Of a stretch of DNA of 64,000 nucleotides, positions 23,546 through 63,210 are shown one piece after another. Each line of letters starts with the position of its first letter. Within the stretch, counting starts at the first letter, position 1. Source of the DNA: Anadara kagoshimensis (taxonomy: Eukaryota; Mollusca; Bivalvia; Arcoida; Arcidae); contig CM037869.1 in assembly GCA_021292105.1 (NCBI GenBank), forward strand, positions 29,961,536 through 30,025,535, in the 5' to 3' direction. The position numbers were made by a program, and so were the translations under genes. The notes under the pieces were generated by a model. It was given only the letters and a program-made list of their open reading frames with translations. It made no database searches and was not told the DNA's origin.

Positions 23546-23771
23546 GTCATTTATTCAAATAATGCTCTTCTTCCACTAAAGAAAAAGGAAAAAATATATC
23601 GAATTTATTTTCTTTTCGTTTATTTTTTAAGACACAATATGAATCATTTTAAGGTTTCGTTTTTACACTTGTTACAATTGTCATTTTTGTACTATTTATT
23701 TTTTTTTATTGAAAACACAATGACAGACAGCGGTACTAACTCGTGGGAATACGTTACAGGGGCTGACAACG

Positions 23772-23891
23772 GTACTGTCATGTGCTGTTTTTGAATTTCT
23801 TTTAAAATAATGCATTAAAAAACAGCACATGACATGCTGTTTTTGAATGCATTATTTTAATAGAAATTCAAAAACAGCACATGACAGTACT
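23772..23891. mobile_element. Small perfect-arm hairpin insertion
   Basis: GTACTGTCATGTGCTGTTTT is mirrored by AAAACAGCACATGACAGTAC, with arms of about 55 bp and a loop of only a few bases. Segmental copy 3 at about 59240 has the uninterrupted GGTACTGACAATCGTGAATA, so this is an insertion. GTACT at both edges (23772-23776, 23887-23891) is a likely target duplication. Confidence 0.85.
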
Positions 23892-23924
23892 GACGATCGT
23901 GAATAAGTTGGGTTATAGGGACAG

Positions 23925-25270
23925 ATAGCGGTATTAACTGAATACGTGAATACGCGGGTTGCCGGGGACACACAGCAGTACTAATTCCCTTGAAAACGCG
24001 GGTTACCGGGGACAGACAGCAGTACTAATTCCTGTGAATACGGTGGTTGCCGGGGACAGACAGTAGTACTAACTCGTGTGAATACGCATTTTACCGGGGA
24101 CAGACAGCAGTACTTATTCCCTTGAATACTTGATTTACCGGGGACAGACAGCAGTACTTATTCCCTTGAATACTTGATTTACCGGGGACAGACAGCAGTA
24201 CTTATTCCCTTGAATACTTGATTTACCCGGGACAGACAGCAGTACTTATTCCCTTGAATACTTGATTTACCCGGGACAGACAGCAGTACTTATTCCCTTG
24301 AATACTTGATTTACCCGGGACAGACAGCAGTACTTATTCCCTTGAATACTTGATTTACCCGGGACAGACAGCGGTACTTATTCCCTTGAATACTTGATTT
24401 ACCCGGGACAGACAGCAGTACTTATTCCCTTGAATACTTGATTTACCCGGGACAGACAGCAGTACTTATTCCCTTGAATACTTGATTTACCCGGGACAGA
24501 CAGCAGTACTTATTCACTTGAATACGTTGGTAACCGGGGACAGACAGCGGTAGTAATTTCCGTGAATGCGCGGTGAGCCGGAGACAGACAGCGGTACTAA
24601 TTTCCATGGATGCGCGGGGAGCCGGAGACAGACACCGGTAATAATTTCCGTGGATGCGCGAGGTGCCAGGGACAGACAGCGATACTAATTTCTGTGAATA
24701 TTCGGGGTGCCAGGGACAGACAGCGGTACTAATTTCTGTGAATACTAGGGGTGCCTGGTACAGACAGTAGTACTAACTTCTGTGAATACTAGGGGTGCCT
24801 GGGACAGACAGCGGTACTAACTTCTGTGAATATTCGGGGTGCCAGGGACAGACAGCGGTACTAATTTCTGTGAATATTCGGGGTGCCAGGGACAGACAGC
24901 GGTACTAATTTCTGTGAATACTAAGGGTGCCTGGGACAGACAGCGGTACTAACTTCTGTGAATACTCGGGGTGCCAGGGACAGAAAGTGGTACTAACTTC
25001 TGTGAATACTCGGGGTGCCTGGGACAGACAGTGGTACTAACTTCTGTGAATACGCGAGGTGCCAGGGACAGACAGTGGTACTAACTTCTGTGAATACTCG
25101 GGGTGCCTGGGACAGACAGTGGTACTAACTTCTGTGAATACGCGAGGTGCCAGGGACAGACAGTGGTACCAACTTCTGTGAATATTCGGGGTGCCAGGGA
25201 CAGACATTGGTACTAACTCCCGTGAGTCAGACGGCAATATTAAATCTGGTAAATAAGCGACGAACAGACA
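23925..25270. repeat. 44-bp minisatellite upstream of HIT-like gene copy 1
   Basis: Units built on GGGACAGACAGCAGTACT plus TATTCCCTTGAATACTTGAT (or TTCTGTGAATACTCGGGGTG) repeat every 44 bp for about 30 copies. A central block at 24100-24520 is nearly identical, which indicates recent local expansion. The same repeat precedes copies 2 and 3 with different copy numbers. It is not coding: small frames such as 25037-25237 on the minus strand are repeat translations. Confidence 0.93.
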
Positions 25271-25448
25271 ATGGTACTAACATGCACGTTCTTTCTTCGT
25301 ATTCGTGTTTTTGTGCTATCGACTTCATCTCTATACTAATGGTACTTAATTAAGGTATAAGGAGCAAACGGGTTTAATGTCGCAATTGAACATGACAAAT
25401 TTTTATCATAATAAAAACAACAATATTTACATTACAGAGAAACAAATT

Positions 25449-26756
25449 ATGGAAGCTAAAGACACCTTAGAAGTAATTGCAAATGACAAATATTACGTCA
25501 CGTTTGACTGGTTTAAGCCACGCCCACGCATGATAATTTTAGAAAAAAGTGACTCAGAGTTTGAGAGTAAATGTCTGAAATCTATGATCCCAACTTCCGG
25601 TATACCAGTGTTTACTGAGATGTCGGACAACGATAAGAAAGCTTTGATCGATATAACAACGGCAACATACAGTCAAGTGATGAAATTCAAATCTGTGGCG
25701 GACATACCCAGTGTCGGGTCACCAGCGGTTTTGTCACTTCGCTTTGGGTCTTGGTTTGCACAGAAGTCAAAGCCCTTCCATGCGCATATCTGTATAAACA
25801 TAGAATCATATGAGGAGTTTATTACAATTTACAAAGACGATAATGTTCTGAAAGAGAAAATGTATAAAGGTTTACCAGCGTATCTTAAAATTGCTAGAAG
25901 GCAGCCTAGGAATTATACAAACGATGACATCGGGGTTTTTGAAAAAGTTTTCAAGGAAAAGGATGGCGGCCAGTATGATTTATTAAAGAAAGATGCTGGA
26001 CTACAGAGTCTGGCATACAACGAGAACTATATGAGAATTGGTTTTGTATCAGACAAGTACGACAATCTCACACTAATGAAGGTGATGGATGACCTTGTTT
26101 CTTCACATGGCTTCCTGAAAGAAAATGGTGGACACATCTGTATCGACCTCGATAAAGGAGGTAATGTAATATAAAAAACCGTACTAGTCTATTTTCAAAT
26201 CAGAATAAAACATCTTTGAAAAATTGCAAATTTAGTTAAACACGTGAACTTCCACCAGGGAAGTGAAACCGGATGCCTTGGAAGGATACATTAGCTGACC
26301 CCATTAAACTGTTCAACCAAAGAAATCGTTTAACAAATTGTACAATTTTATTTATGTAATTAGTCGACGCTCCTAATGGGGTTGTTCGTTTCATTTAGTT
26401 CTTGTAAACACCTACCAGAGGTGCCTAGATGCTAACTCTAAACAATAAAATTTTACTGTGGCCGACCAGAAAAGTATCTAGAAAAACACCGGGAAATCAT
26501 GAGCACGTAGCGTGCTATATAGAGATCTCTTTCATCTGTCGATAATGTAAGGTTTGCAATTAAACCCTTTTATTTTTGAATAGGTTTCCCTGGATACAGA
26601 ATGCTGATTGACAGTTCCGAAGTAAAACAGGCAAACGTCAGAGGTTATCTTCAACTTCCAGGAGAGTCTTTTGTGACATTGTTGAGAGCATTTGGTATAG
26701 GCCAAGATTGGCTTACAAAATACGACCATACTGAAATGAGCATTGTTTACACTTAG
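25449..26756 (+). CDS. HIT-like protein, copy 1 (triad altered, PFHAHIC)
   Basis: Two coding exons, 25449-26160 and 26584-26756, join in phase 1 across a 423-bp GT-AG intron (GGAG/GTAATG, TTGAATAG/GTTTCC) to give 294 residues. The exon begins after an ATTACAG acceptor at 25437, so an upstream 5' UTR exon probably exists. An in-frame ATG at 25377 lies before that acceptor. If the intron is retained, the frame stops after GGNVI. The region around residue 109 matches the HIT superfamily motif H-x-H-x-H-x-x, where the middle histidine is the usual nucleophile for nucleotide phosphoester substrates. Here the first position is proline (P109; H111 and H113 kept), and copy 3's H98 is arginine. The C-terminal exon, starting FPGYRMLIDSSEV, is conserved in all copies. 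Substrate unknown. This copy may be catalytically weakened or repurposed. Confidence 0.8.
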
Positions 26757-26795
26757 AAACGAAGAACAACTGACCGTCATAAGGACCACTGCTAT

Positions 26796-27377
26796 AGGCG
26801 AACAACATCGACCTGTCCGCTTGACCTTTATTTTAAACGTTACCATGAATGAATATAATTTTATCTACATTAGACTAGTTTCTCTATCCGATTTGACGAA
26901 ATACAAGTTTTATCGAAAACGTATGATACAGAATCTTGTATCATATAACATTGGCGGTAAAGCGCACGTGCACTTTCTCATTGTTACGTCATCAGGGAGT
27001 CTTGGATTTGTCGGTCATAACATAGTTCAGTGGTTTTCTGTGGTAAAATGTCATTTTTTCACATAAAGTATTTTTTTCATTATTTTTTTTATTGGAAATG
27101 TTAGATAAAAATATTATATACACAGTGTGTATGTACAACCCTTCGTATCAGGTCTTGTCCTTTTTTCGTACTGAGTGTTGTACATACACACTGTGTATAT
27201 AATATGTATATATTAAGGGAACGCATGTATTTATTTTGTATCCATAATGAGTAATATTGCACGCGAACACTGTTACTTATTAACTGCGACTTCTGAAACT
27301 AACCTTGTAATGGCTGGATTATCTTCTATTGACATTCCTAATAAAAGGTCAAACGGACAGGTCAATGATGTTTGCCT
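26796..27377. mobile_element. MITE family C with an internal insertion
   Basis: Left end AGGCGAACAACATCGACCTG, with TCCGCTTGACCTTTATTTTA following, pairs with right end TAATAAAAGGTCAAACGGAC...ATGATGTTTGCCT. Copy 3 carries the same element at the same place (61638-61870), while copy 2 lacks it. Here about 360 bp has been added between AATTTTAT and GGAACGCATG. The plus-strand open frames at 26743-27066 and 27247-27435 lie in this element and are not genes. Confidence 0.8.
27111..27205. repeat. Inverted repeat, 29-bp perfect arms
   Basis: ATATTATATACACAGTGTGT...GTACAAC (27111-27139) is exactly mirrored at 27177-27205 around a 37-base spacer. It lies in the part of the family C MITE found only in copy 1. 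Confidence 0.9.
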
Positions 27378-27525
27378 ATGCCTTGTAACGTTTAAACTTT
27401 TGAAATTATTATTTTTATTATATAATTTAACATAGATTTTATAAATATTATAAACTTTTATCAACTTTTGAATATATATTTGTAATACCACTGTGTATGT
27501 ATTAGTATAATTATTTTTAAAAAAT

Positions 27526-27732
27526 GTATGTTTACTTATCATAGGGAAAATTTTGGTAATCTTTTTTGTAACTGCTAGTAAATATTTTTGATAAACTAAT
27601 TATAAATTTAAAAAAAAAAAAAACTTAAATGGTTCTTCAAATTGACATCTTAGATACCTAAATATCTGAAAAATCAAAATTATTAAGATTTGAAATTTTG
27701 CCAAGGAAAATTTCATTTGTTTTGTAGTACTA
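27526..27732. mobile_element. Old MITE family A remnant shared by the segmental copies
   Basis: TAAGATTTGAAATTTTGCCAAGGAAAATT and the preceding text resemble the right half of family A. The corresponding positions in copies 2 (53975-54205) and 3 (62040-62225) carry the same remnant, so it predates the duplication. Confidence 0.5.
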
Positions 27733-28650
27733 GTATATACTGGTATATAGGAAACTTTATGACTATTTTGTCTTCTTTTGGGGCATGTAAGTATAACAGA
27801 AATGCATGGTTTTCCGAGGTGGTCGTAGCTTGAAATGAATCATGTGAGAAGCGTGAAAAGATCTTGGGTTAGAGACTTATATTACAAAACCAAAAGTATA
27901 GTTTACTACATATTTTAGATAATAGTTTGTAACATTCCTAAGACGTTAATGTATAGTGGTCATTTTAAGGACTTGTTTCAATCGTGTTTTAATTTCTTTT
28001 GAAAATGACATAGAAGCAGCAATGGAGGGACGAAAGGGCAGAGGTAAAGTATATCCCCTCCCTTCTTCTTCGAGTCGTGGGTATGTTTTAAAATGCCAAA
28101 ATGTGAATGTATGATACAAAGAGTGGAGAAAGCCAATCGTAGGAAAGCAGACGAATAATTCATTGCTGGCCCGTTTTTTTACTCACTCCAATCACCATCT
28201 TGTGGCGTCATGGTATGCTTTGCAAACGATGGCGTATCGTATTTGCAATTCATCAAATTATTGAATTCAATGGCGGTAATATCAACAATTGTAATACATC
28301 AATGTTTTTGTTTTACAATTAAAATGTACAGTCATGTATTTTTGAAAAGAAATCAACAATGTCTATTTCCACGTTTTAGTTTAAGGATTTATTCATCTGA
28401 GGAGTCCAAAATTCCCACCATTTTTCTTTACTTATTTTTTTGGAAGCATGTGACTATAAAACAATTTATGAATACTTTTTTTCGCTGGGGTAATGATAAT
28501 AAATTTATCATAATCGTCTCAATACTCCAAACAATGAAGCCATGTAAAAATTATATAAAACGTGTAATATCGTTTTTGCGACCTTGGTAACCAGCTCGCA
28601 ACATTTCAATGTACGCACCCTATGACATCAACTGTTGTTTGTTTCATTGG

Positions 28651-29079
28651 CGAACTATTAACATTGATTCATTGATAGAGGAATTTAATAAAGGAAGTCG
28701 CATGTGAGTTTTTTTTTTTTCTTTTTTTTTTTTTTTTTGCCTCTTGGAAAAGTAATTTATACTTTTGACATAATTATAAATAAAAAATAATATTATTTGG
28801 AAGAATGTACACGTTTACTTGACTTCTGTTGTCAATCAGCTCTTTTCATACAGAGAATGCAGGTTGCATTTTCACAAAACCCCGTTTTTTCTGAATTACA
28901 TAATAAGTAGAATCTTACAATGACGTCAGTACAGAATGTTCAGAATTGTGACGTCAAAAAAGTAGCGTAGGAATACGTCAGAAAAAATAGAGACGGATTA
29001 CGACCTTTATGTTTGTACAAAAAGACACTTGTCCTCGGCTCATGATTCTGTTTATATTACGAGAATGGAGTGAGTAGTA
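28651..29079. other. Gene-free stretch between segmental copy 1 and the LINE
   Basis: A poly-T tract at 28710-28738 and several TGACGTCA-like words (28921-28980). No gene. Confidence 0.4.
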
Positions 29080-29210
29080 GTCGTAGTGGACAGACGTGTT
29101 TACCTGAGCTCTGTAAATATCGAATTTAAAATGGATTTTAATGCAAGTTTAGAAAATTTAGTTAGTTATATAGTTATATAAAGCTGAGAAGAAAATTGTT
29201 GAACTTTTAA

Positions 29211-30458
29211 ATGAGCCAATCGAGCCAGCAAAACCAAGATGAAATTGAAAAACGACCCAAAAAGAAAAAGAAAACAAAGAGTGGTCAACAACATGGCGGC
29301 GAACAGGTAGATAATATAAGTAATACTAATTGTTCATTTGTCTGCCCACCTGTACAATCAGGAAACACATAAGGAACTATTGCGATGATGTCTCAACCAG
29401 CTCAGGGTATACCTGCGGTAAATAATAGCGGCTACAATAACGCTACCTTCTCGCACTAACAGTTTTATCCAGGAGTTCCTAATGCACATTATGATTATAC
29501 CACAGTTCAAAATATTCCAAATACACAAAACACACAAGATGTTCATAACAAGCTTGACAATATTGCACATAAAATGGACGCAATTTTAACAAGAATAGTA
29601 AATGTAGAGATTTCCATAAAAACAGTTTCAAATGAAGTCACTGACTTAAAACACAAAGTGAATGAGGTTGAAACCAGTATAAATTTTATAAATGACAAGT
29701 TTGAAAAATGCAATAGTGATATAGGAAAAATTCAAAAAGTAGCAGAGGAAATGAAATCTGACAAAGATGAAATACACAGAGAAATATATAATCTGAAACG
29801 TGACTACAAAGAACTGAGTGAACGTCACATAGAACTCCGGTCTCGGTCAATGAGGGACAATTTAATCTTTCATGGAATCCCCGAAAACGCTAACAAAGAT
29901 AACACTGAACAAGAAGAAAACACGGAAGACATTCTCAAGTAATTTATAACAGATACATTAAAAATTGAAAAACATATTGACTTTCACAGGGTACACAGGA
30001 TGGGACACAAAAGAGGACAGAATAAGTCGCGACCAATTGTTGCAAAATTTGTACAGTTTAAAGATCGTGAAATAGTAAGGAAGGCAGCACCGACAGCATT
30101 GAGAGGCACACATTTTGGAATAAATGAACAGTTCCCAAAAGAAGTGAACAATAAAAGGAAAGAACTGTATCCTTATCTGAAACAAGCCAAACAACAAAGG
30201 AAATAGGCCGTGTTAGTTTATTACAAACTATATATTGACGGACAACTATTCGTACAGAAAGAAAGGCAAAACGCACAAAGGATGGATACACATGAAACAC
30301 AAAAACCAGCGAAAGGGCACAAAAACCAGCGAAAGGTAAAAACGCGCAACAATCCGGAACCCGTACGGGACCCCCGAAGCAAACAGGAACAAATAAAACA
30401 ACCAATCAGCGAAACGATAAGTAGGACAACCATGGAGGTGAACAAGGTGACAATTTAA
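29211..30458 (+). pseudogene. LINE ORF1 (RNA-binding protein type), four premature stops
   Basis: One frame from ATG 29211 to the TAA at 30456-30458 spans 416 codons but is interrupted by TAA near 29364, TAA near 29457, TAA at 29940-29942 and TAG/TAA at 30204-30206, with no frameshift. The N-terminus has a lysine-rich tract (KRPKKKKKTK). Codons from about 125 to 215 form a heptad-rich coiled coil (VTDLKHKVNEVETSI). SMRDNLIFHGIPE marks the RRM-like part, and DFHRVHRMGHKRGQ with RPIVAKFVQFKD the C-terminal domain, as in L1-type ORF1p, which trimerises and coats element RNA. Decay by point mutation alone suggests a fairly young copy. Confidence 0.82.
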
Positions 30459-30469
30459 CTTTATTTAAT

Positions 30470-33400
30470 GAAAACAGTGACCCTATTTCGATATTATCGT
30501 TAAATGTTAGTGGCAAAAAAAGAGACTTCATTACCCCGAATTTCAAGAACTGATTAATGACTTTGATATTTTATGCTTTACAGAAACGAAAACTGACGCC
30601 GTTGATAATGTTACCATACCCAATTTTGAGTGTGTTTGTATCAATATAGATTAACTTTAACACATAGACGATCAGGTGGTATGATAGTATACGTGAAAAG
30701 TTGGTTACATCCATACGTTATACCTGGTAATACTAATAATAAGTATGTATCTTGATTCTATATCAAAGGTAGCATTTTTAAATATAGCTTGTGGTACAGT
30801 ATATATACCCCCAGAAAATTCATTGTACTAATCCCCTGAAATCTTTAACGAAATTGAAAACGATTCAATATCAATATCGATAAATCACAAATACATATGT
30901 CTACTTGGTGACTTTAATAGTCGAACTGCTTGTGCAGACGAATTTTATGTAAGTCACACACATGGTCTAGAAGAACCATGTAATAGTGAAATAGCCGATA
31001 TTTCCTTTTTTAGTGATCTTGGTATCCACATAAATAGGTCAAGCATGGACAGTAAGAAAAACAATTACGATAAGCTATTTTTAAAAATGTGTAAAAACCA
31101 GAACCTATTTATTTTTAATGGGCGTATAGGTAATGATAAAGATATTGGTAGATGCACGTCTAAAGAAAAAAGTGTAGTTGACTATTGTACAGGTACTAAA
31201 GATATGTTTAAACTAGTAAATGACTTTTGTGTTATGGAATTTTCAAAATTTTACTCTGATGTACATAATCCTGTATATGTAAAGTTATGGTTGAAAGATG
31301 TTGCTTCTACACCCACTGTTAATAACTCGAAAGGTAATAATTGTAATACCCAGCATTTTATAAAGTGGGATAATAAAAAAGCCAATGATTTTAAGTATAA
31401 TATTATTATTGATTCTGTAAATACTTTGTATAATATGTTAGATAATTTAAGTTTTGAAGATGTTGATTCCTCAATTATTGATGAGGTTGTAGGTGATATT
31501 TGTAACATTTTTCTAGCTTCTGCAAAAACAACATTTGGTACTTTTTCAAACAGTGGTAAAGTTAAATCTGTAAACAAACCCTGGTTTACCAGAGAATGTG
31601 ACTCTGCTAGAACCAACTACAGGAGAGCAAAGAGGTAATACAAGAAATATGGTTCCGAAATGTTTAAATCTGACCTTCGCAAAAAAGAGCATGAGTATAA
31701 AAAACAATGGATAAGTGTATAAACTTCCATAGAAAGGAAATGAAACGAAACTTATGGGGCTACGCTCTAGTAATCCAAGTGAATACTGGAAAATTTTAAA
31801 TAAAAACACTAGTTGTAACAAGTCATCCCCAATATCAGTAAATGCATTATTTGATTTTTTTAAAGACTTAAACGCAGGGACAAATGTTATTGATGAAAGT
31901 GATTTGATATTTGATTTTAATGATGTTAAATATGATGACAGTTGTTTAAACCAACCGATTACAAGTGAAGAAATTATGAACTGTATTAAAATGTTAAGAA
32001 CACAAAAATTCCCGGGTGATGATTTAGTTATTAATGAATATATTATAAATACTGTAGATTTATTTTTACCAGTGTATGTTAAACTTTTTAATGCTATTTT
32101 TGATACAGGTATTGTTCCGTCTGACTGGTTAAAAGGTATTATTATACCTATATAGATAAACAAAGGTGAAGAGGGTAACCCAAAAAATTATCGACCAATC
32201 ACCTTATTAAGCTGTCTTTGTAAACTGTTTACAAGTATTATCAATACAAGGTTATTTGTTTTCTCAGAAATATATACATTTGTTGAATGAAAACCAATCA
32301 GGTTTTAGAAAGGGCTATTGTACTATTGATAATATCTTTGTATTACAACATCTTTTTGAAATATTACGCCTGTCAGGAAAAAAATTATTTTGTGTTTTTA
32401 AAGATTTTGAAAAGGCTTTTGACAATGTGTGGCGCCCATCATTATGGTCTAAATTAATTACAAATAATATTGATGGAAAATGTTTAAGAGTTATACAAAA
32501 TCTTTATCAAGGGATCAAGTAAAGAATAGACTTAAATAATTGTAGTTCTCAATTTTTTGAATGTAATATCGGTGTTCGTCAAGGACATAGCCTTTCTCCA
32601 CTTTTATTTTCTCTATATTTAAATGATCTAGAATTATTTTTGTCAGAAAAAGAAGTGAAAGGTTTAAGTACTGTATCACAAGAGTTTGAAAGAAGTGCTC
32701 TAAACTATGTTAAATTACTTTGTTTGTTATATGCAGATGATACTGTTTTGCTAGCAGAATCGCAAGAAGATCTACAACTCACGATAGATACTTTCTCACA
32801 ATACTGTTACAAATGGAAACTAAATGTTAACATCAGTAAGACAAAACTACTTGTATTTTCTAAAGTTAGAATTTCAAATAAACTCAATTTATTTTTTAGA
32901 GGTATCAAACTAGATGTAGTTAACGAATTCTCTTATCTTGGTCTAATTTTATCAGGTTATGGTACTTTTAATAAAGCAAAGACAGATCTTGTTCAAAGAG
33001 CACAAAAGGCTATGTTTGGTGTACTTAAAAAATTAGAATACATAATCTATCCATTGATTGTCAATTAGATCTTTTTGATAAAAGTTTTAAACCTACACTA
33101 TTATATGGTTGTGAGTTATGGGGTTTTAGCAAGTTAGACATTATTGAACAACTGCATCTAAAATTTTGTAAACATGTGTTATGTGTTAACAAATATACAT
33201 CGAATAATATGGTATATGGTGAACTTGGAAGAACACCACTCTCTATTGATGTTAAAACTATAGTTATCACTTATTGGGCTAAAATTGTATGGGCACATAA
33301 GAGTAAACTAACAAAGAATATTTATAATTTAATTTACTATCAATCTGTTCATAATAACTGTAATTTCCCTTGGTTAAACTATGTTAAGTGTATTTTAGAA

Positions 33401-37672: not shown

Positions 37673-37712
37673 TACTAAGTGTTATTCAGTTTTCTGGTTC
37701 TATTACGTAAAC

Positions 37713-37773: not shown

Positions 37774-37852
<79 letters not shown>

Positions 37853-40800
37853 TCCCTCGCTTTTCGTACCACCACGGTTCTCGCTTTCTGTCGTACCACT
37901 AGTTACTCAGTTGGTATTGTGCTTGCTCCGTATATATATATATGTGAGAGGTCGAGAATTCGAACCCCAGCCGAAGTCTTGACTTTAAAATAGGTAGTAA
38001 ATGTTCTTTCGCCATCGGCATTTAAAATTGAAAGTCATGGGGTTCTTTGGAAGAGACCTTTAAACCGATTGCAGTCGTGTCATGTTAAAAAATCCATGAA
38101 TTGTCCTGATCACACTGCACAGGACAAAATTTCTGCCACTCTATCTATATTTGTGACATCTCGATATAAGCGTTATACTCTTGTCTGGCACGTTTAACTA
38201 AATTCGAATAATCAATCTCTCTCGTATTTACTGTGTTAAACCGATTTTTAATAAAACCAACTTATTGTTGCATCTAAACATTTGTTTAAGTTTGTCATGA
38301 CTGCAATAAGAAGGTACGTGGTGGAAGTGACAGAGAAGATTTCTGGCTCGATGTGATTCAGGAACAACGAGAGGCAAGAAAATGTGCTGAAATAAAATTA
38401 AAGAAGATCGGTACGTACACAATTAGGGTTATTGGAACTTTTTTTCAACTCAAATGCATTCTGTAAGTAATAAATATTCAATCCTAGCTCAATTAATTGT
38501 TCTATTCTATATTGATATAAAATATTGATAAGAAATAATGAAAATTATTTAACTGATAAAAAATATTTTCACAACAGTGAAATAAATATATTTTAATCAG
38601 TGAAAAATTTGTATACTTCATTTGGTATTTCGAGGTTTTTGTATTTGCTCACCTGAGCCGAAAGGCTCAGATGAGCTATTGCTATCTATCACCGTCCGTT
38701 CCCGTTGTTCGTCGTCCGTCGTGTGTCGTGCGTGGTGCGTCGTGCGTAAACTTTACATTTTAATCTTCTTCTCCAAAACTACTGAGCCAAATTTGAGGAA
38801 ACATGGTGATTATTATGCCTGGGTAACAGGCTTTCAAATTTGTGTTCGGGGTTTGACCACACCCAAAAATATGGCTGCCGTTACTATAAATAGCCAAAAG
38901 ACAAAAAATCTTCTTCTCTGAAACCAAATTTTAATTAGATTTTTTGATTCAGGATACCTAGATACATTTAAATTGTGTTTTTCATAAAAATTGGATGAAA
39001 AACAGGTACGCGTTTTTTGCGTAAAATTATTTAATTTTTAATATGAGACATAATGGCTGAAGATAATTGTATGAAGATTTCACTGTTGATCTTGTCTTGC
39101 GATATTTTTCCAATTGATGTCAAAGGTCAACCCCATGTCCCAGTTTTTGACCTTTGATAAAAAATGCTATTTTTTAAACATTTCTGGTGATATTGACGTA
39201 GTATTTTTTGTTAATTGTAAGTATTGACATGAGGATCATTTTGATATATTGATTAAGGTTATGGGTTCAAAGGGCAAGGTCACAGATGTACAAGTTTACC
39301 AAAATAGTTAAGTATCTGCAAAACTATGAACTTTTTGTATAGGCATGTATATTAGAATATTGTAGGTAATGGCTTAATGTTCATTTTGATATATGAATAA
39401 AGGTCTTGAGTTCAAAGGTCAAGGTTAAAGATGTAAACAAGTATTGCAACGATTATTTATCTCAAAAACTATAGACATTTTGTATAGGCATGTATATTAG
39501 AATATTGTAGGTAATGGCCCAATGGTAAATTTGGTACATGAATAAAGATCATGAGTTTAAAGGTCAAGGTCACAGATGTAAACAAGTATTGAAATGATTA
39601 TTTATCTCAAAAACTATAGACTTTTTGTATAGGCATGTATATTAGAATATTGTAGGTAATGGCCCAATAATCATTTTGATACATGAATAAAGGTCATGAG
39701 TTCAAAGGTCAAGGTCACTGATGTAAAAAAGTACTGAAATGATTATTTATCTCAAAAACTATAAACTTTTTGTATAGTCATGTATATAAGAATATTTTAG
39801 GTATTATCCTAACGATCATTTTGATATATGAATGAAGGTCATGGTTCAAAGGTCAAGGTCGTAGATGCAAATGAAAATCTGAATGGTTAATTATCTTGAA
39901 AACTATTAACGATTTGTATATGCATGTTTATAGAATATTGTAGGTATTAGCCTAACAACCATTTTGATATATGAATGAAGGTTATGGGTTCCAAGGTCAA
40001 GGTCACGGATGTGAACAAGTTCTGAAATGATTATCTCAAAAACTATAAACTTTTTATGTAAGCATGTATATTAGAATATTTAGGTATTATGCTAATGATC
40101 TTTTTGATAATGAATGAAGGTCATGGGTTCAAAGGTCAAGGTCACAGATGCGAAAGAAAACTTAATGGTTAACTATCTTAAAAACTATTAACTTTTTATA
40201 TAGGCATTTATATTAAAATTTTAAGTATTATCCTAATGACCATTTTGATATATGAATGAAGGTCATGGGTTCGAAGGTCAAGGTCACAGATGCAAAAGAA
40301 TACCTAAATGATTAATTATCTTGAAAACTATTATTTTTTGTATAGGCATGTATGTTAGAATATTGGCCTAATTATCATTTTGATATTTGAATGAAGCTCA
40401 TGGGATCAAAGGTCACAGGTGAGCGTTAAGGCCTATGGGCCTCTTGTTTAATTTAGAGATATTCCTCTTTCACTGAGGGTTTGCAAACGTCGGTCATTGT
40501 GCGTGACGCAGGTTTTTATAGCAAAAGAATATGTAAGAGATAATGGAAACTTTTTTTATATTCGAATACAAATGTATACAATGATCATAATATCGGGTTC
40601 AAAATTAAAGCAAATTGATCAAAAGTTTTACCTCACTGAAACATACATCAGGAATTTAAATTCCGAGGTCTGGGTCTGATGGCCAAAGATCCCTGACCTT
40701 CAATTATAAAACATAATTTTAAACCCCCGATTTGTTTTTTAATTAGAACAGGGCGTTTGTGGTTGTTATAAATTCTTGCTGACTGGTGGAGATATGAACA

Positions 40801-48753: not shown

Positions 48754-48787
<34 letters not shown>

Positions 48788-51220: not shown

Positions 51221-53085
51221 ATGGAAGCTAAAACCGACTTAGAAATTATTGCAAATGACAATTATTACGTCACGTTTGACTGGTACACGCCACGCCCACA
51301 CATGATAATTTTAGGAAAAAAGGACACAGGGTCCGAAAGTAAATGTCTCAAATCTATGATCCCAACTTTCGGTACACCGATATTTACTGAGATGTCGGAC
51401 AAGGAGAAGGAAGCGTTAATCACCATAGCAACGAAAACGTGCATTGAAGTGATGAAATTAAAACCTGTGAAGGGTATACCGGGTATCGGGTCACCAGCGG
51501 TTTTGTCACTTCACTTCGGGTCTTGGTTTGCACAGAAATCAAAGCACTTCCATGCGCATGTCTGTATGAACACGGAAGCATATCAAAAATGGATTAAGAC
51601 ATACGCAGATAATCCTATTTTAAAAAGGAAACTAAAATATGGTTTAGCATCGTATCTTCAAAAAGCTGGAGATCAGCCAAAGGATTATACAATCGATAAC
51701 ATTAAGGCCAGTATGACTTATTAAAGAAAGATGCTGGACTACAGAGTCTGGCTTACAACGAGAACTACATGCGGATTGGTTTTGTATCAGACAAGTACGA
51801 CAATCTCACACTAATGGAGGTGATGGATGACCTTGTTTCTTCACATGACTTCCTGAAAGAAACTGGCGGACACATCTGTATCGACCTCGGTAAAGAAGGT
51901 AATGTAATATGAAAAATCGCACTAGTCTATGTTCAAACCAGAAATTAAAAAACAAAGTAAAATCTTTTAAAAACTGCCAAAAGTTATACATGTGACCTTC
52001 CACCAGTAAAGTGAGACCGTTGCTCCGGAAGAGTAAGTATCTCCTGTTTAGCTTCATGTACCTACACCTGTTACGAAGAGATGTTTAGTTACAGTAGCTT
52101 CATTAGCATGCTGATTCTTGACATGAAGTTTAAAAACTATATACCTTTTTGATCATGCTAAAAACTTGGCCCAAAGGGTCTCTGTGACCTTTGAAGCAGA
52201 TCAAGGTCAAATCTATTCTAAACTTTAAAGAACTCCAGGCAGTTATTCTATTAATGAAATTTGATGTCTACAGGCCTTATGGTTCATAAGAAGTCATATT
52301 CAGCGTTTTTCCTTAAAAGGGCATGGTGACAATGAATGAATATCAAGTTCTAATCTATTCTCAAACTTTGTAGAATTCAACACAACGATTAATTATCTGA
52401 AGTTTGATGTCTATAGATCTATTGCTTCATAAAAAAAGTCATTTTATCATTTCTTCATACAAGGTCACAGTGACATTGAACAAAGGTCAAGGTCAAATCT
52501 ATTTATTAACTTTTTAGAACTCAATACACTGATAATATATCTGAGGTTTATAATGTCTTTAATCCTTTTGGTTCATGAAAATATGTCGTTTTTAATGTTT
52601 TTACATACAAAGTCATGGTGACTTATACTAACGTCAAGGTAAAATCTATTGAAAAAACTTTGTAGTACTCAACAAACTTATTCTATATATGAAACGTGAT
52701 GTCTATAGACCTTTTTGTTAATGAGAAGGTGTCTACAGTATATAACTACATTTCACAAATTATCATATAGGATTATTGGCTTATATGTACGCTACGTCAC
52801 TGATAAAGGTCCTAACCCGAAAAGCACCGAGAGTTCACGAGCACGTATCGCTCCATATGAATCTTCATCTGTCTTTATTATATTATTTTTAACTAAACCC
52901 TTTATCTTTGAACAGGTTTCCCTGGATACAGAATGTTGATTGATAGTTCCGAAGTACAACAGGCAAAGGTCAGAGGTTATCTTCAACTTCCAGGAGATTC
53001 TTTTGCTAAGCTGTTGACAGTGTTTGGTATTGCCAAGGGATGGCTTACACAAAACCAACCTCAAATGGGCATCGTTTACACTTAG
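51221..53085 (+). pseudogene. HIT-like gene copy 2, frameshifted by a 34-bp deletion
   Basis: Exons 51221-51898 and 52916-53085 retain the splice sites of the other copies (GAAG/GTAATG, TTGAACAG/GTTTCC). The triad HFHAHVC is intact near residue 110. At about 51705 the text AACATTAAG/GCCAGTATG lacks 34 bases present in copies 1 and 3 (the stretch for VFEKVFKxKDGG), so the frame ends at TAA 51722-51724 after 167 residues. Downstream, KKDAGLQSLAYNENYMRIGF and the C-terminal exon (one codon shorter) are well kept in the shifted frame. That points to a recent break, a real short product, or an assembly error. The 1017-bp intron contains an inserted repeat. Confidence 0.82.
52070..52725. repeat. 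Tandem ~145-bp repeat inserted in the copy 2 intron
   Basis: CAAGGTCAAATCTATT, TTTGATGTCTATAGACCT-like and AGAAGTCAT phrases recur four times at 140-150 bp spacing. It accounts for the longer intron relative to copies 1 and 3 (423 and 539 bp). GGTCAAGGTCA text suggests relation to the CTCACCTGAG family. Confidence 0.7.
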
Positions 53086-54744: not shown

Positions 54745-55440
54745 TTATTTCATAAAATTTAACGCCATTTTTTATATATTTATTACTTATTGAATCAGAT
54801 TTTATTATATACATAAATCAACTGACTGGCCTGTAATTAAAGGCAAAGCAAAAATGTCAACACATATCGTTCAAAGGGTGGTAGAGATGGGCTGTATTTA
54901 AACACTTATTGCACATATTTTTGAACTAATAGTTGTATCAATTAATTAAAATACTTTAATGAATAATTTCAATATCTAATTATAGTTTGTGAAGACATAT
55001 CGGACATTTTAGTCTGTAACAGCCGAAACCCTTTTGTCAGGGAAGCAGAAGTTAGATGGGGTATACTTCTGTAATGAACTTTAGATTGTTCACATTTACT
55101 CTTAATTCAAATTATTTATTTATTATCAGACTTAAAAATCGGAATTTCAGTCACTTGAATTCTTGAATGCAACAATCACTACAGCGCCATGTCATCCGAA
55201 TTCAGTGAATAAAATGAGTTTAAAATATTTTTAATTTCCTATATTTTTTACAACACATAAAAGATGCACGAATGGCATTTTTGTAAGAGAAATTATCATT
55301 CTCAATTGATCAGTTAAAATAATCTCAAAGCGTTTAACCGTGTATTTCGGCATCATTGTTTACAATCGAAGCAGCAAATAAGTGTCCCTAATTAAAGTCA
55401 CATGATAATAAAAGTCACATGACACTTCTTCCGGAGCATA
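54745..55440. other. Insertion of unknown type in segmental copy 2
   Basis: Roughly 700 bp separate GCTTTGCAAACAATGGCG from GGCGTATTGAATTCAATGGC, which lie close together in copies 1 and 3. No gene or clear ends recognised. Confidence 0.5.
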
Positions 55441-55814
55441 TCTGAGAAACGGCGTATTGAATTCAATGGCACTAATCTTAACAAAGAATTTTATAAATGA
55501 ACCTTGCTTTACAAATAAAATGTATATTTACTTCTAAAAACTTAGTTCACAGTGTTTATTTCTATGCTTTTGATTAAAGGATGTATTCTTCTGAGGAGTT
55601 GAAAATTTCTCGCAGTAAATGTTTTACATACCATTTGGAAGGATATGGTTTTAAGCAAGTCTTTATGCAAACATAATCATAATTTTTGATAGGGGACTAC
55701 TTTTTTGCCAGCATACTTTATCTGACGTCATGACCTTGTCAATGATAGAACCTGAAAATAACATAGACAAAACTACCTGTCATAACTACATGTTTTAAAA
55801 CATTTTTATGAGAT

Positions 55815-55915
55815 CCATCTACGCCCCAGTGAAGAACATTTCATTCATATCGAGACGTTAACAAGCTACAGGTAAAGTGACAGAAACTTATATCTTTGCA
55901 GTGCGCTCAGAGCAA
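55815..55915 (-). mobile_element. SINE family 1 tail fragment
   Basis: CCCCAGTGAAGAACATTTCA and TTCATATCGAGACGTTAAC match the tail end of the family in reverse. The rest is absent. A dispersed repeat D fragment follows (55915-55990). Confidence 0.6.
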
Positions 55916-55990
55916 ACAGATAGCTAAACAGAAGGTGCTAATTATTCCGGATCACCTGGTCTCACTTCCCTGGTGGAGAGTCATCTAATT

Positions 55991-56884
55991 TGCCATTTTC
56001 AAAAATTTTACTTTGCTGTGGAATTGTAGTTTGGACATGGATTGGTATGTTTGTTATTGATCTTCAAAAGGCTATCAGATCTGACTCTATTCAAAGTGTA
56101 TGTGACTTATTGTCAATATTCATAGAGGTCTACTGGAGAAAACTGATGTCCTTCAAGAAACTGTGTAATGTAACTACGATGGTGAATATTAGACGTCAAG
56201 TTTTCAAGTTTTACTTCTAAAGGAAAAGATGTACATTTTGTCATCAACTCTTTTATTTCTTTTGAAAGAAACGTGTATGTTGTCACTGCAAGATTTGACA
56301 TGTCATTTTCATATTTCTCTTAAGTTATTATTACCTTTTAAGAAAGTCGACATCTTTCTCATTGTCGCATTTCTTTCTGAAATAAAATATTAAATAACAT
56401 GTAATTTGTAACAGTTTTGCAAAGAAATATGACAATCAGAAAGGTGATAATATTGTAATCAATTTTCTAAAATTGTAAGAACACCGTTTGAGAAATATGA
56501 AAACTGGCAACAGAAACTTGACACTGACAAAATACAATCTCCACAAAGGAATGTAACAATAACAAAAGAGGCAATTTTTGTCGTCAACTTTCTAAAATGG
56601 TAAGAATAACGTTAGAGAAATATGAAAACTGACAACAGAAACTGGGCAATGACAAAACAATTTTCTACAAAGAAATTTGACAATTACAAAAGATGCAATG
56701 TTTATGGTCAACTTTCGAAAATGGTAAGGAGGTAAGACTAACGTTAGAAAATTATGAAAACTGACAACATAAATTAAGTTAAATACCAGGAAAGTGGACT
56801 TGGTGCACCAGATGGGTAAGTCTTATAAACTTATAGAATAGGTATCAAGAATACAATGAGGATCAAGACTTCATTAGAGTTTTA
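55991..56884. other. Gene-free stretch with a degenerate tandem repeat
   Basis: ATATGAAAACTGACAACAGAAA and TCAACTTTCTAAAATGGTAAGA phrases recur three times between 56440 and 56780 at about 120-bp spacing. The 76-codon frame 55990-56220 has no support. Confidence 0.5.
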
Positions 56885-57130
56885 ATCTTAACCTACTCTC
56901 GGCTATTCAGAAGTCGTGGGTTCGAACCCCGACCGGATCTGACCAAAGACTTTAAAGTGGTTAGTGACTGTTCTATCGCCAAGAAATTAAAGTCGCTGTT
57001 CTCTCGGATTGAGATTTTTTGAATAAACGAGGTCTCGTTTCACGATAAAGAACCCTGTTGAACACCGAGCTATCAAAAATGCGTCGAATTTTCCAGGTGT
57101 CGATTCACCGTTATATCGATAGCTGGTGAC
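56885..57130 (+). mobile_element. SINE family 1 copy
   Basis: GTCGTGGGTTCGAACCCCGA (B box) is followed by ACCAAAGACTTTAAAGTGGT and ATAAACGAGGTCTCG. The A-box part is degraded and the tail is not recognisable. Confidence 0.8.
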
Positions 57131-57490
57131 TGTGGGAAAATATATCATAACTGTCGAAAAATGCTTTAATTTTGTGCGATTTTCTCTATTTTTTAAATTT
57201 TTATCTTAATTTCGCAACAAAATTGAAATTATTGATAAACTGGTGTGTATATGTACAGTTCCTGGAACTTCCTGCATCTTGGGTTTGCTATCTCTTTTCC
57301 ACAACATCCGATTTTACGTGAAGGAGGTTACCTTTATAAATTTTGGCTATAACGAATGCCACTTGTTTGAAAAAATAAATTCAAATTTATAATTATAGTT
57401 TCCAGGTTTATGCTGGTTATGTTATCAACACAATAAACACACAAACACGCATACACTACACTGCCATCCATACATAACTTTACAAATATA

Positions 57491-58404
57491 CAGTAAAACC
57501 TCTCTAAACCGGACAAGCTCCGGACCATAGATTTTGTCCGGTTAGGGAGGTGTCCGGTTTAGAGAGGTTTTGACATTTTAACTGGTTTATCTCACCTTAA
57601 CTAAATAAATCTAGAAAGATGTGATACATGTAAGAGAAGCCACACAATCAACAACACTACATGTTAATGTTACTTAAACATCTCATTATATGATATGCTA
57701 TATGTAAGAGCACTGTTTAGTTTTAAATCACCATTAATTCCCTTTCTTAATAGGATTCTAATTAGGATACTCATGGCAACACAACACTACCATTATCAAT
57801 CCCTGACTAGACAACAATAGTGTTGACACCTTTCCAGTCTCCTTGATTCATAAGGTGTTACTGGATAATAATTAACAAAATAACTGATAATAAGATGAGG
57901 TTATATAGAAGTGATTATCTTAAGTTATTGGGTCAATTAATAAATAAATCAATAAACAAATTTAGATTATAAAGAAAAATCACAAAAGAAAGAATAGATA
58001 AAAATATATAGATGAAAAATAATTACAAAATAAATATATGAGTAATTAAATTAAATACCAAATATTTTGAATAAGAATTAAAAAAAAAACTTATGTTTTT
58101 TTTAAGTGTCCATAATTGAATATCTTTATAAACCTATTTAAAACTAATATATTTAAATAAGGAAAAAAGTAATTACAAAAAAAAAAAAAAAAATCAAAAT
58201 GTTGTCCGGTTTAGAGAGGTTCAATTTTAAGGATATAAGCAACTTGGGACTAAAAAGTTTGTCCGGTGTCCGGAATAGAGAGTATCAGGTTTAGAGAGGT
58301 TCTTGTTTGTTGAAATAAAAAAGGATAAATTCGGGACCAAATATTCTGTCCGGAATAGAGAGTTGTCCGGTTTAGAGAGTGTCCAGTTTAGGGAGGTTTC
58401 ACTG
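57491..58404. mobile_element. TA-flanked transposon remnant (pogo/Tigger-like ends)
   Basis: The left end CAGTAAAACCTCTCTAAACC and the right end GGTTTCACTG after GTCCAGTTTAGGGA are inverted repeats, flanked by TA on both sides (57489-57490, 58405-58406). CAGT-AAACCTC ends with TA targets resemble pogo/Tigger members of Tc1/mariner (knowledge-based inference). Subterminal blocks repeat GTCCGGTTTAGAGAGGTT several times near both ends. The A+T-rich middle has no transposase frame. Confidence 0.8.
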
Positions 58405-59189
58405 TATCTTTATTATAGGTTACATTATAAATATAATATCTAATTTTGCTCATACAATTAGAAAATATTGAAGTTGAAATTGAAGTCATAAACTTTATGA
58501 TCTAAATGTATGTAATATAAAGATGTTTTTCTTGAAAATCAATTGTATTGAAATTTTCTGAAATTTGGACAAACATATAAAAAGTGTATTATAAGTGTGT
58601 GTGTGGGTGGGTGTGTGTGTGATCTATCCTTGTTTATATGTCCAAAAACGAGGTTTTAAATATCAGATAATTGTGAAAAAGGAAATACTTGTTTACTCAT
58701 TTATAAAGATTTTAATTTTTTTATTTTTAAATCGTAAAGTTGCAATAAAAACAGGAAACAAACAATATTGTAAAAAGAACAAACGGAAATCACCTTATTT
58801 TTATTGTTTTAATATTTTTTCATAAGTTCATTGCCTCCGCTTCATTTGGATACTCACCATATCTTTCAAAACTTAGTAAAAACTGTGAGTATAAATATAA
58901 TACCTCATTCATCTTTATATAAAATAACTTTTAACATGCTTGTGCCAGATATAATGTTTGTATTAGATCTTGCCAGTTCGTTACCCCATAAAGCTTCTGC
59001 TTGCGGGTAAATTCTGGGACTTCAAATTAAAAAAAAAACCAAGAAAACAGAAAAAGAAAAAGGAAAAAATATATCGAATGGTTTTTTTTTTTCGTTTCTT
59101 TTTTTTTGGGGGGGGACATAATATGAATCATTTTAAGGTATCATTTTCACACTTGTTACAATTGTCATTTTTGTACTGTTTATTTTATG

Positions 59190-59990
59190 GCAAACACAAT
59201 GACAAACAGCGGTACTAACTCTTATGAATGCGCTTAGTTACAAGGGCTGACAACGGTACTGACAATCGTGAATACGCTGGGTTATAGAGACAGACAACGG
59301 TATTACCTGACGTGAATACACGATTTACCGGGGACAGACCCTTGAATACGCGGGTTGCCGGGGACAGACAGTTGTACTAACTCCCATGAATACGCGATTT
59401 ACCGGGGACAGACAACGGTACTAATTCTTGTGAATACGGTGGTTGCCAGGGTCAAACAACGTTACTAACTCCTGTGAATACACGGGTGTCAGGGACAGTG
59501 GCACTAACTCACGTTTATACGCGGGTTGCCGGGGACAGACAGCGGTGCTAATTCCTGTGAATTTGGTGGTTACAATGGGTAAAAGGTGATATTTATTTCC
59601 GTGAATACGCGCGGTGCCGGGGACAGAGAGTAGTACTAACTTTCGTGAATACGCGATTTAACGGCGACAGACAGCGGTACTAATCCCTGTAAAAACGCGG
59701 GTGCCAGGGACCTACGTTGGCACTAACTAACGTTTATACGCGGGTTGCCGGAGACAGACAGTGGTACTAATTCCTGTGAATTTGGTGGTTGCAATGGACA
59801 TACAGTGGTTTTTATTTCCGTGAATACGCGAGATGCCGGGGACAGACAGCGGTACTAATTATTGCGAATACTCGGGATGCCAGGGACAGACAGTGGTACT
59901 TATTTCTTTGAATATTCGCGGTTCCAGAGACAGACGGCAATATTAAATCGGGTACATAAGCGGCGGACAGACAATGGTACTAACATGCAC
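59190..59990. repeat. 44-bp minisatellite upstream of copy 3
   Basis: About 17 units built on GGGACAGACAGCGGTACTAA and TTCCTGTGAATACGCGGGTT, more diverged from one another than the central block of copy 1. Confidence 0.9.
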
Positions 59991-60170
59991 GTTCTTTTCT
60001 TCGTGTTTTTGCGCTATCGACTTCGCACTAATAGTACTTAATTAAGGTATAAAGAGCCAATGAGCAAACGGTCGAAATCGAACATGACAGATTTTTATTA
60101 TGTGTACTGCATGATATACTAAAATAAAAACAAATTAAAAAACAATATTTGCATTACAGAGAAACGAATT

Positions 60171-61594
60171 ATGCAAGCTAAAGACGTCTTAGAGGTTATT
60201 GCAAATGACAAATATTACGTCACGTTTGACTGGTACACGCCACGACCACACATGATAATTTTAGGAAAAAATGGCTCAGAGTTTGAGAGTAAATGTCTGA
60301 AATCTATGGTCCCAACTTCCGGTAAACCGATGTTTTCTGAGATGTCGGACAACGAGAAGAAAGCTTTGATCGATATAGCAGCGGCAACGTGCAGTAATGT
60401 GATGAAATTCAAATCTGTGGCGGACATACCCGGTGTCGGGTCACCAGCGGTTTTGTCACTTCACTTTGGGTCTTGGTTTGCACAGAAGTCAAAGCACTTT
60501 CATGCGCATGTCTGTATAAACATAGAACCATATGAGGAATTTATTACAATTTACGAAAAAAATGATGTTCTGAAAAAGAAAATGTTTAAAGGTTTAAATG
60601 CGTACCTTAAACTTGCTAGTAGGCAGCCGAAGGATTATACAAACGCCAACATCGAGGTTTTTGAAAAAGTTTTCAAGGTAAAGGATGGCGGCCAGTATGA
60701 CTTATTAAAGAAAGATGCTGGACTAAAGAGTCTGGCTTACAACGAGAACTACATGCGGATTGGTTTTGTATCGGACAAGTACGACAATCTCACACTAATG
60801 AAGGTGATGGATGACCTTGTTTCTTCACATGGCTTCCTGAAAGAAAATGGCGGACACATCGTTATCGACCTTGGTAAAGGAGGTAATGTAATATAAAACA
60901 ACAATCGCACTAGTCTATGTGTAGAATAAAAATAAATAACAAATAAATCAAAGAATTATTTTTGAAAACGTAAATTTAGTTAAACAAGTGAACTTCCTCC
61001 AGTGAAATGAGACCGGATGCCTCGGAATGGTACATTGGCTGACCCCATTAGAATGTTTTCACTGTTTAACTGAAGAAATTGTTAGCCAATTGTATTTTTA
61101 TGAAATAAGTCGGCATTCTTAATCGAATTGTATATTTTTTAGTTCTGAAATACAACACCTACCAAGGACTTCTAGTTGCCAATTGTAAACAATAAATGAT
61201 TTACTGTGGCCGAACAGAAAAGTACATAGAATTACAGGATATTGTATTTTTTAAAAATTTTATTTGTGGTTCCAGGACATCACCTTATGGCACATTTAAT
61301 CAATTAAGGTCAAAACCCTAAAATCACCGGGAGATCACGAACACGTGACATGCTATATATAGATCACTTTTATCTGTCGTTATTTTAAGGTTTGTAATTA
61401 AACCCTTTTATTTTTGAACAGGTTTCCCTGGATACAGAATGCTGATTGATAGTTCCGAAGTAGAACAAGCAAAGGTCAGAGGTTATCTTCAACTTCCAGG
61501 AGATTCCTTTGGGACGCTGTTGAGAGCATTTGGTATAGGCCAGGAATGGCTTAAAAAATACGATCATACTGAAATGAGCATTGTTTACACTTAG
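60171..61594 (+). CDS. HIT-like protein, intact copy 3
   Basis: Exons 60171-60882 and 61422-61594 join in phase 1 over a 539-bp GT-AG intron to give 294 residues, the same length as copy 1. A GCATTACAG acceptor ends at 60159, 11 bases before the ATG, implying an upstream non-coding exon. Residues 109-115 are HFHAHVC, a complete histidine triad. Upstream come YYVTFDWYTPRPHMIIL and GSPAVLSLHFGSWFAQKSK; downstream YNENYMRIGFVSDKYDNLTL and the exon 2 part GFPGYRMLIDSSEV and VRGYLQLPGDSFGTLL. HIT enzymes hydrolyse or transfer nucleotide phosphoester groups through a histidyl intermediate. The protein is longer than HINT-type members, with an added C-terminal region I do not recognise. No signal peptide, so likely intracellular. 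Best candidate for the functional member of the cluster. Confidence 0.85.
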
Positions 61595-61637
61595 TAACGA
61601 AGGACAACTGACCGTCATAAGGACCACTGCTATATAT

Positions 61638-61870
61638 AGGCGAACAACATCGACCTGTCCGCTTGACCTTTATTTTAAATGTTACCATGAATGAATATAA
61701 TTTTATTTATGGAACGCATGTGTTTAATTCGTATACATAATGAGTAACATTACACACAAACACTGTTACTTATTAGCTGCGACTACTGATACTATCCACG
61801 TAGCGGTTGGATTATCTTCTATGATATTCCTAATAAAAGGTCAAACGGACAGGTCAATGATGTTTGCCTA
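61638..61870. mobile_element. MITE family C in copy 3 flank
   Basis: AGGCGAACAACATCGACCTG at the left, AGGTCAAACGGACAGGTCAA and TGATGTTTGCC at the right. Same position as the 26796-27377 element of copy 1, minus the internal insertion. Confidence 0.83.
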
Positions 61871-63210
61871 TGCCTTGTAACGTTCAAACTTTTAAATTAA
61901 TAATTTTTATTATATAATTTAACATAGATTTTCATAAATATTATAAACTTTTATGAATTTTTGAATGTATATTTGTAATACAACTGTGTATGTATTAGTA
62001 TATTATTTTTTTTTAAATGGAACATATGCACGTATGTTTACTTATCATAGGGAAAAACTTGGTAATCTTTTTTGGAATTGCTAGTAAATATTTTTGATAA
62101 ACTAATTACAAAAATGTAAAAATCTTGAAGTGATCTTGAAATTGACATCTAAGATACCTGAATATCTGAAAAATCAAAATTAATAAGATTTGAAATTTTG
62201 CCAAGGAAAATTTTATTTGTTTTGTAGTATATATCAGTATATAGGAAATTAATGGCTAATTTGTCTTTTATTGGGGCATGGAAGTATAACAGAAAATGCT
62301 TGGTTTTCCGAGGTGGTTTTTGCTTAAAATGGATCATGTGAGAAGAGTTATCTTTACATGAAAAGATCTTGGGTTAGAGACTTTTGTTCACTGTTTCAAA
62401 AAATAATTTGTACCATAACTGACAATTTCACGTATATTTCTAATTTTAAGAACTTGTTTCAACCATGTTTTAATTTCTTTTGACAAACGCCCACAAGCAA
62501 TGGACAGTACAGACAGAAGAGTATACCACCTTCCCTCTTTTTCGAAGCGGGTGCTAAAACTCGAGTCTTTGATACAAAGAATGGAGAAAGCCAACCATTA
62601 TAAGGCAGACGATATGTTTATGGCTGATCCGTTTTGTTGACTCACTATTATCATAACCTTGTGACGACATGATGCTTTGCAAACGATGGCGTGGCGTTAT
62701 TGAATTAATTGAATTTAATATCAACAACCGAATTTTATAAATGAACATTGTTTTACAAATAAAATTTACATGTTCTTTTAAAAAAAATCACAATGTTTAT
62801 CTAATTTTGATTTAACATGTTTTCTTCTGAGAGTCCAAAATTTCCTGAATTAAACTTTTCTTTACTTATTTTTGGAAGGATATGACCATAAAACAATGAT
62901 TTATGAATCTTATTTCGCTGGGTAATGTTTAAAAATTGTATACCTGTATAATCTTCTCAATACAATAAAGCAATGTAATAAAATCATATTACACACATGT
63001 AATATCGTGTTCCAGACCTTGCGTAACCATTTGCACATGTGACATCACTACATCAACTGTTGTTTGTTTTAATGGAAATGAACAATTATTCAAAATACAT
63101 GTATATAATAAAAAATTACAAAATGACGGGTTCTTTATAAATTCAGTTACAAAGACCGTATGCATCAATTTGTTTTGATTTTTTGCAAGGATTGCGTTGT
63201 ATTACACTTC

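What the first reader, a model, noticed from the sequence alone, without database searches (positions are those of the whole stretch)
23570..63095. Three-copy cluster of HIT-like genes at three different stages of decay
Copy 3 keeps the complete triad HFHAHVC, copy 1 is full length but has P instead of the first H (and R for H98), and copy 2 has a 34-bp frame-shifting deletion with an intact triad. The splice sites match in all three. The family (HIT-like core plus a conserved C-terminal exon starting GFPGYRMLIDSSEV) is one I cannot name and may be undescribed in function.
Basis: partly seen in the sequence, partly recalled or inferred. Interest (0 to 1): 0.8.

Follow-up and report, generated by a model that had tools for sequence, protein, structure and literature searches.

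The report
Tandem HIT-like gene cluster with pseudogenes
An animal chromosome carries a tandem cluster of nine copies or fragments of an unnamed gene that looks like a distant relative of histidine-triad (HIT) nucleotide-cleaving enzymes; some copies are intact, one has lost part of its predicted active site, and others are broken.

Summary
Copy 3 is open with HFHAHVC; copy 1 is open with H98R and H109P; copy 2 lacks 34 bp after window 51705. The cluster is larger than reported: nine loci on one chromosome (29.925-30.076 Mb), none found elsewhere in the 1.1-Gb genome. Five are open, two frame-shifted, two 5'-truncated with no HIT core detected. Copy 8 has copy 3's coding sequence. Copy 1 also lost H27: 3 of 5 otherwise invariant histidines are gone, but not the two matching HIT nucleophile and proton donor. 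Between copies 1 and 3, residues 1-170 look neutral and 171-294 constrained, so 'decay' is unproven for copy 1. HIT membership is plausible, not established: no Pfam HIT match, low-confidence models, a weak collinear profile alignment (3 of 300 shuffles score higher). Best reading: a fast-turning-over family of divergent HIT-like nucleotide hydrolases with an unnamed C-terminal part.

The parts
25449..26160 (+). copy 1, coding exon A (237 codons and the first base of the next); H27R, H98R, H109P against the other copies
26584..26756 (+). copy 1, last coding exon with stop (GFPGYRMLIDSSEV...)
51221..51898 (+). copy 2, exon A, triad intact; 34 bp missing between 51705 and 51706 shifts the frame
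52916..53085 (+). copy 2, last coding exon
60171..60882 (+). copy 3, coding exon A with complete H109-F-H111-A-H113-V-C and H27
61422..61594 (+). copy 3, last coding exon with stop
23945..25225 (+). 44-bp minisatellite (29 units, 90% matches, 49% GC), ending 0.2 kb before the copy 1 ATG
   Evidence: all 42 genome-wide matches to a 21-base piece of the unit (up to 2 mismatches) lie in the five arrays of this cluster
59339..59935 (+). the same 44-bp minisatellite, degenerate (about 13 units, 65% matches), ending 0.2 kb before the copy 3 ATG

Best explanation
A tandemly duplicating family of divergent HIT-like proteins (293-294 aa, two coding exons), found at one place in this genome. SHOWN: nine loci in 151 kb; five open (c1, c3, c4, c6, c8), c2 and the minus-strand copy m frame-shifted, c5 and c7 5'-truncated; a co-duplicated cluster-specific upstream minisatellite; low pN/pS in residues 171-294 between c1 and c3. 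INFERRED: residues 6-117 form a HIT-type core in which central H111 would attack the phosphorus of a nucleotide conjugate (P-N or P-O bond), giving a nucleotidyl-histidine that water resolves, with H113 as proton donor, H27 in the role of HINT1 H51, and H98 where HINT1 has N99. The remaining C-terminal residues (118-294), with no counterpart in single-domain HIT proteins, would set substrate or partner. c3, c4, c6 and c8 should be catalytically competent. c1, which lost H27, H98 and H109 but kept H111 and H113, is either a binding-only (pseudoenzyme) copy, an altered-specificity enzyme, or an early pseudogene. c2 could at most make a truncated HIT-only product.
For: Cluster. Gene models and shared splice phase, including the 48%-identity copy m. 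Selection: (residues 171-294 P 1.3e-5; N/S ratio differs between the two parts, P 0.0019); against the old copy m, NG86 omega over residues 1-163 is 0.14-0.21 for c1, c3, c4 and c6, with dS near 2 or more and so unreliable. HIT-like core: hhalign of the paralogue profile against 87 HIT proteins (80 loci of prokaryote genomes, 6 of viral contigs, one of contig C22) is collinear over residues 6-117 at relaxed settings; score 19.83, exceeded by 3 of 300 column shuffles; longer profile 20.47, exceeded by 2 of 60. In that alignment G100, Q105 and the triad fall on the HIT positions. Both AlphaFold2 models, of low confidence, place strands at about 15-21 and 27-31, a helix at 60-80 and strands at 93-99 and 110-115, the HIT order as I recall it. 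Catalytic roles: passages of PMC7157772 and PMC6648240.
Against: No Pfam HIT match at E<=10; a PF01230 search of the genome did not list the cluster among its 10 matches. pLDDT 39.5 and 42.9; no HIT structure among 17 Foldseek hits or the 50 shown of 193; the second model adds strands at 43-46 and 54-57. hhalign at default aligns only residues 47-114; global mode E 0.15; with m as reference the score is 15.94. With H27 and the triad masked the score is 15.74, exceeded by 9 of 200 shuffles, and the triad strand no longer aligns; with H27 alone masked its register slips by one, so the H27-H51 pairing rests on that residue itself. Q105 is K in m. Residues 1-163 have omega 0.48-0.99 (NG86) or 0.61-1.55 (YN00, where returned) among c1, c2, c3, c4, c6: weak constraint for an enzyme core; and residues 164-213 are poorly kept against m (dN 0.57-0.60, dS not computable), so the C-terminal part is not uniformly conserved over long times. 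A PADLOC Specificity_I profile reaches E 5.5e-4 in 3 of 6 rows. No transcript or protein evidence.
Confidence: 0.5

Rival explanations
1. The core is not HIT: the HxHxH strand is a metal-binding or structural site of an unrelated fold, and the resemblance to HIT is convergence of one short motif.
For: No Pfam, NCBIfam or PDB sequence match to HIT; with the four histidines masked 9 of 200 shuffles score higher; models uninformative.
Against: The N-terminal part aligns collinearly with HIT strands 1 and 2, and this holds roughly when the triad is masked; G100 and Q105 of copy 3 fall on the HIT G and Q positions.
Confidence: 0.33
2. Copy 1 is simply an early pseudogene in neutral drift.
For: Residues 1-170 against copy 3: pN 0.102, pS 0.112, P 0.72; with copy 2 as outgroup the copy 1 branch has 21 N and 5 S changes over codons 1-163, close to the neutral site ratio of about 4:1; three histidines lost that are invariant in the other five rows.
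Against: Open frame of 294 codons, intact splice sites, and few replacements in residues 171-294 (P 1.3e-5), although that constraint could lie on the copy 3 branch or reflect conversion. The open copies c4 and c6 are as rich in replacements as copy 1 in the same test (18 N to 6 S and 20 N to 6 S), so this richness does not mark copy 1 as a pseudogene.
Confidence: 0.35
3. Part of the copy number (c3/c8; c4-c5/c6-c7) is a haplotype wrongly placed in tandem by the assembly, not true duplication.
For: Paired blocks run for many kb at 94-98% identity, a range known for alleles of very heterozygous marine animals (recalled).
Against: No N gaps in the 184 kb examined; c1, c2, c3, c4/c6 and m differ clearly from each other.
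Confidence: 0.3

Closest known systems
HINT/HinT branch of the HIT superfamily (PF01230)
   Same: HxHxHxx strand, an H before the second strand, weak collinear profile alignment
   Different: Not recognised by PF01230; about 16-residue insertion after strand 2; about 175 extra C-terminal residues; core in one exon, whereas a HINT-like gene of this genome on C12 matches PF01230 in two separate pieces 1.2 kb apart
MccH clade of HIT hydrolases (bacterial; PMC7157772, passages seen)
   Same: Precedent for HIT enzymes that replace the N-terminal His together with one triad His; copy 1 shows an analogous double replacement
   Different: MccH replaces the third triad His (by K), copy 1 the first (by P); no sequence closeness shown
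Aprataxin, DcpS and CwfJ-type HIT proteins
   Same: HIT core with extra domains (recalled)
   Different: No Pfam hit to any of them at E<=10 in the proteins scanned

Membership tests
HIT superfamily | H-phi-H-phi-H-phi-phi motif | tested here: met
   HFHAHVC in c3, c4, c6, c2 and m (c8 has c3's coding sequence); copy 1 has PFHAHIC and does not meet it. A at the fourth place is small
HIT superfamily | Pfam HIT profile above its cut-off | tested here: not met
   cluster not among the 10 matches of PF01230 in the genome
HIT superfamily | collinear profile similarity over the whole domain | tested here: inconclusive
   hhalign E 0.008, 3 of 300 shuffles higher; histidines masked, 9 of 200 higher
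HIT superfamily | HIT alpha/beta fold | tested here: inconclusive
   pLDDT 39.5 and 42.9; no HIT structure among the matches listed
HIT superfamily | nucleotide hydrolase or transferase activity through the central His | not testable with these tools

The most novel reading that the evidence does not exclude
An undescribed animal HIT-plus-C-terminal-domain family in which one tandem copy (copy 1) has dismantled its phosphate-binding histidines while selection keeps the C-terminal part, giving a pseudoenzyme or re-targeted hydrolase beside active sisters, under a private upstream minisatellite that travels with the plus-strand copies that are not 5'-truncated and drives their copy-number turnover.
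Probability: 0.18. Interest if true: 0.6.

Novelty: new variant of a known kind. Interest (0 to 1): 0.35.

Why it matters
If the HIT assignment is right, this is a HIT lineage that the Pfam HIT model does not detect, with active-like and active-site-stripped copies side by side in one genome: a natural mutant series for asking which histidines a HIT protein needs and what the unnamed C-terminal part does. If wrong, it is an ordinary case of tandem gene turnover.

Tried and rejected
Relatives: scans of prokaryote genome contigs and viral contigs, and tblastn of phage and plasmid records, gave none. No collection of other animal genomes was available, so nothing is known here about other animals. 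PDB by sequence: best E 0.14 (KIF2C) for the protein, 0 hits for the profile. PHROGs: best E 0.037, families of unknown function. NCBIfam: DNA polymerase III gamma/tau, E 0.03, taken as chance. PADLOC Specificity_I, E 5.5e-4 at best, residues 2-87 of row 1: taken as chance because only 3 of 6 rows match and the score is 15.7 bits, but it is a lower E-value than any HIT profile gave. The stretches with internal stops that one search shows for c5 (residues 110-239) and c7 (148-239) are probably over-extended: blastn against copy 2 and copy 3 and tblastn find these loci only from about residue 185 on. Literature: five searches on HIT genes with mollusc, bivalve, oyster, scallop or pseudoenzyme terms listed no paper on such a family; listings only, 10 of 29 shown, and three listed mollusc papers that contain 'histidine triad' (PMC3510179, PMC4531390, PMC11817969) were not opened. 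The His-loss test (P 0.03) was devised after seeing the losses.

Full report
WHAT IS THERE. The window is G000:C13:29961536-30025535 of a 1.115-Gb eukaryote genome held as 36 contigs. The three copies are real. Copy 3 has coding exon A at 60171-60882 and last exon at 61422-61594, copy 1 at 25449-26160 and 26584-26756; both give 294 aa. Copy 2 lies at 51221-51898 and 52916-53085 and lacks 34 bp after 51705. Donor (AG|GTAATG) and acceptor (AG|GTTTCC) are shared. The ATG sits about 11 bases after another AG that all seven copies shown share, so a non-coding first exon is likely (inference).

THE CLUSTER IS LARGER. A pattern for the last exon finds 8 plus-strand places. A protein search gives 19 exon matches, all on C13, which resolve into nine loci: m (minus strand, 29.925-29.928 Mb, 48% identity), c1, c2, c3, c4 (30048772), c5 (30053064), c6 (30061462), c7 (30065871) and c8 (30074974). 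A search with m adds one chance-level place elsewhere (E 1.6). c1, c3, c4, c6 and c8 are open with 293 or 294 codons. m shifts frame near the end of exon A. c5 and c7 match copy 2 (99.1% and 98.6% over 347 bp) only from about residue 185 on; no HIT-like core was detected in the 0.7 kb before that. c3 and c8 have identical coding sequence and sit in paired blocks 52-53 kb apart at 94-98% identity (between 30016030-30043293 and 30069328-30095338); c4-c5 and c6-c7 form a second pair about 12.7 kb apart. There are no N runs in the 184 kb, but a misplaced haplotype cannot be excluded.

SELECTION. Copy 1 against copy 3: residues 1-170, N 41.5 and S 11.5 (pN 0.102, pS 0.112, Fisher P 0.72); residues 171-294, N 10 and S 15 (pN 0.034, pS 0.191, P 1.3e-5); the N/S ratios of the two parts differ with P 0.0019 (counts rounded for the tests). 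With copy 2 as outgroup, codons 1-163 have 21 N and 5 S on the copy 1 branch and 12 N and 6 S on the copy 3 branch, 8 ambiguous; the c4 and c6 branches have 18 N, 6 S and 20 N, 6 S, so many replacements in the HIT-like part are not peculiar to copy 1. Against the old copy m, NG86 omega over residues 1-163 is 0.14-0.21 for c1, c3, c4 and c6, with dS near saturation; for c2 no dS could be computed; over residues 164-213 dN is 0.57-0.60 and dS not computable. Over long times the HIT-like part (dN 0.365-0.400) is thus better kept than residues 164-213, while the last exon keeps 57% identity. Introns of c3 and c4 are 81% identical while their exons are mostly 94-100%, which suggests conversion between exons and makes dating unsafe.

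ACTIVE SITE. Of 158 columns filled in all six aligned rows, 72 are invariant in the five rows other than copy 1; copy 1 departs at 12 of the 72, including 3 of the 5 histidines (H27R, H98R, H109P) and neither H111 nor H113 (hypergeometric P 0.03, post hoc). By the hhalign register and my counting on the HINT1 chain printed, these places match HINT1 H51, N99 and H110; the H27 match depends on that residue itself. PMC7157772 (passages) states that the central His is the nucleophile, that the third His gives the proton, that an N-terminal His supports the third, and that the MccH clade replaces the N-terminal and third His yet hydrolyses phosphoramidates. PMC6648240 (passages) notes that H51, H112 and H114 of HINT1 are mutated in a human neuropathy. 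So copy 1 is probably impaired or altered, but inactivity is not shown.

IS IT HIT? Against: no Pfam HIT match, low model confidence, no HIT structure among the Foldseek matches listed (all 17; 50 of 193), default alignment limited to residues 47-114 and a weak global score. For: the motif, a collinear alignment over residues 6-117 at relaxed settings, and the order of strands and helix. Shuffles that score higher: 2 of 60, 3 of 300 and, with the histidines masked, 9 of 200. I put the HIT assignment at about 0.6 and do not file the family as an established member.

UPSTREAM REPEAT. A 44-bp minisatellite ends about 0.2 kb before the ATG of c1 (29 units, 90% matches) and of c3 (more degenerate); similar arrays precede c4, c6 and c8, and one remnant place lies about 0.4 kb before copy 2. 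A 21-base pattern from the unit, up to 2 mismatches, has 42 matches in the genome, all in the five arrays and all on the plus strand, with 0 control matches. It co-duplicated with the genes and could be a promoter element or a seed of unequal crossing-over; neither is tested.

ORGANISM. Not named. An intronless HIT gene on contig C22 resembles Mycoplasma, and some of the best matches are strains that I recall as coming from molluscs (titles), hinting at a mollusc host with a mollicute associate; this is inference.

VERDICT. Real, under-counted, and ordinary in kind (tandem birth and death), with one unusual member (copy 1) and an unnamed, possibly HIT-derived protein.

Noticed in passing
window 23945-25225 and 59339-59935: 44-bp GC-rich minisatellite private to this cluster, upstream of c1, c3, c4, c6 and c8 in one orientation.
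   Followed up: partly
L040 (G000 contig C22, 276308-276598): Intronless bacterial-type HIT gene closest to Mycoplasma records (best four 54-57% identity): C22 is probably a mollicute symbiont or contaminant contig in the assembly.
   Followed up: partly
window 12607-13669: 32-bp tandem array, 33 units at 97% match, with strong GC skew (-0.44 in the 12-14 kb bin).
   Followed up: no
window 9066-10271 (minus): 401-codon frame kept open through a 60-bp tandem array; weak Pfam matches only.
   Followed up: no
window 18991-19737 and 39234-40420: 145-bp repeat arrays of one family in opposite orientation about 20 kb apart.
   Followed up: no
window 32211-33068: Reverse transcriptase fragments (PF00078) in two adjacent open stretches, probably a decayed retroelement.
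   Followed up: no
window 29460-29942: 160-codon open frame that matches many coiled-coil profiles weakly (best HAUS1, below its cut-off).
   Followed up: no
window 60883-61421 (c3 intron) against the c4 intron: Introns 81% identical (c3 has about 120 extra bp) while the neighbouring exons are mostly 94-100%: a sign of exon gene conversion.
   Followed up: partly
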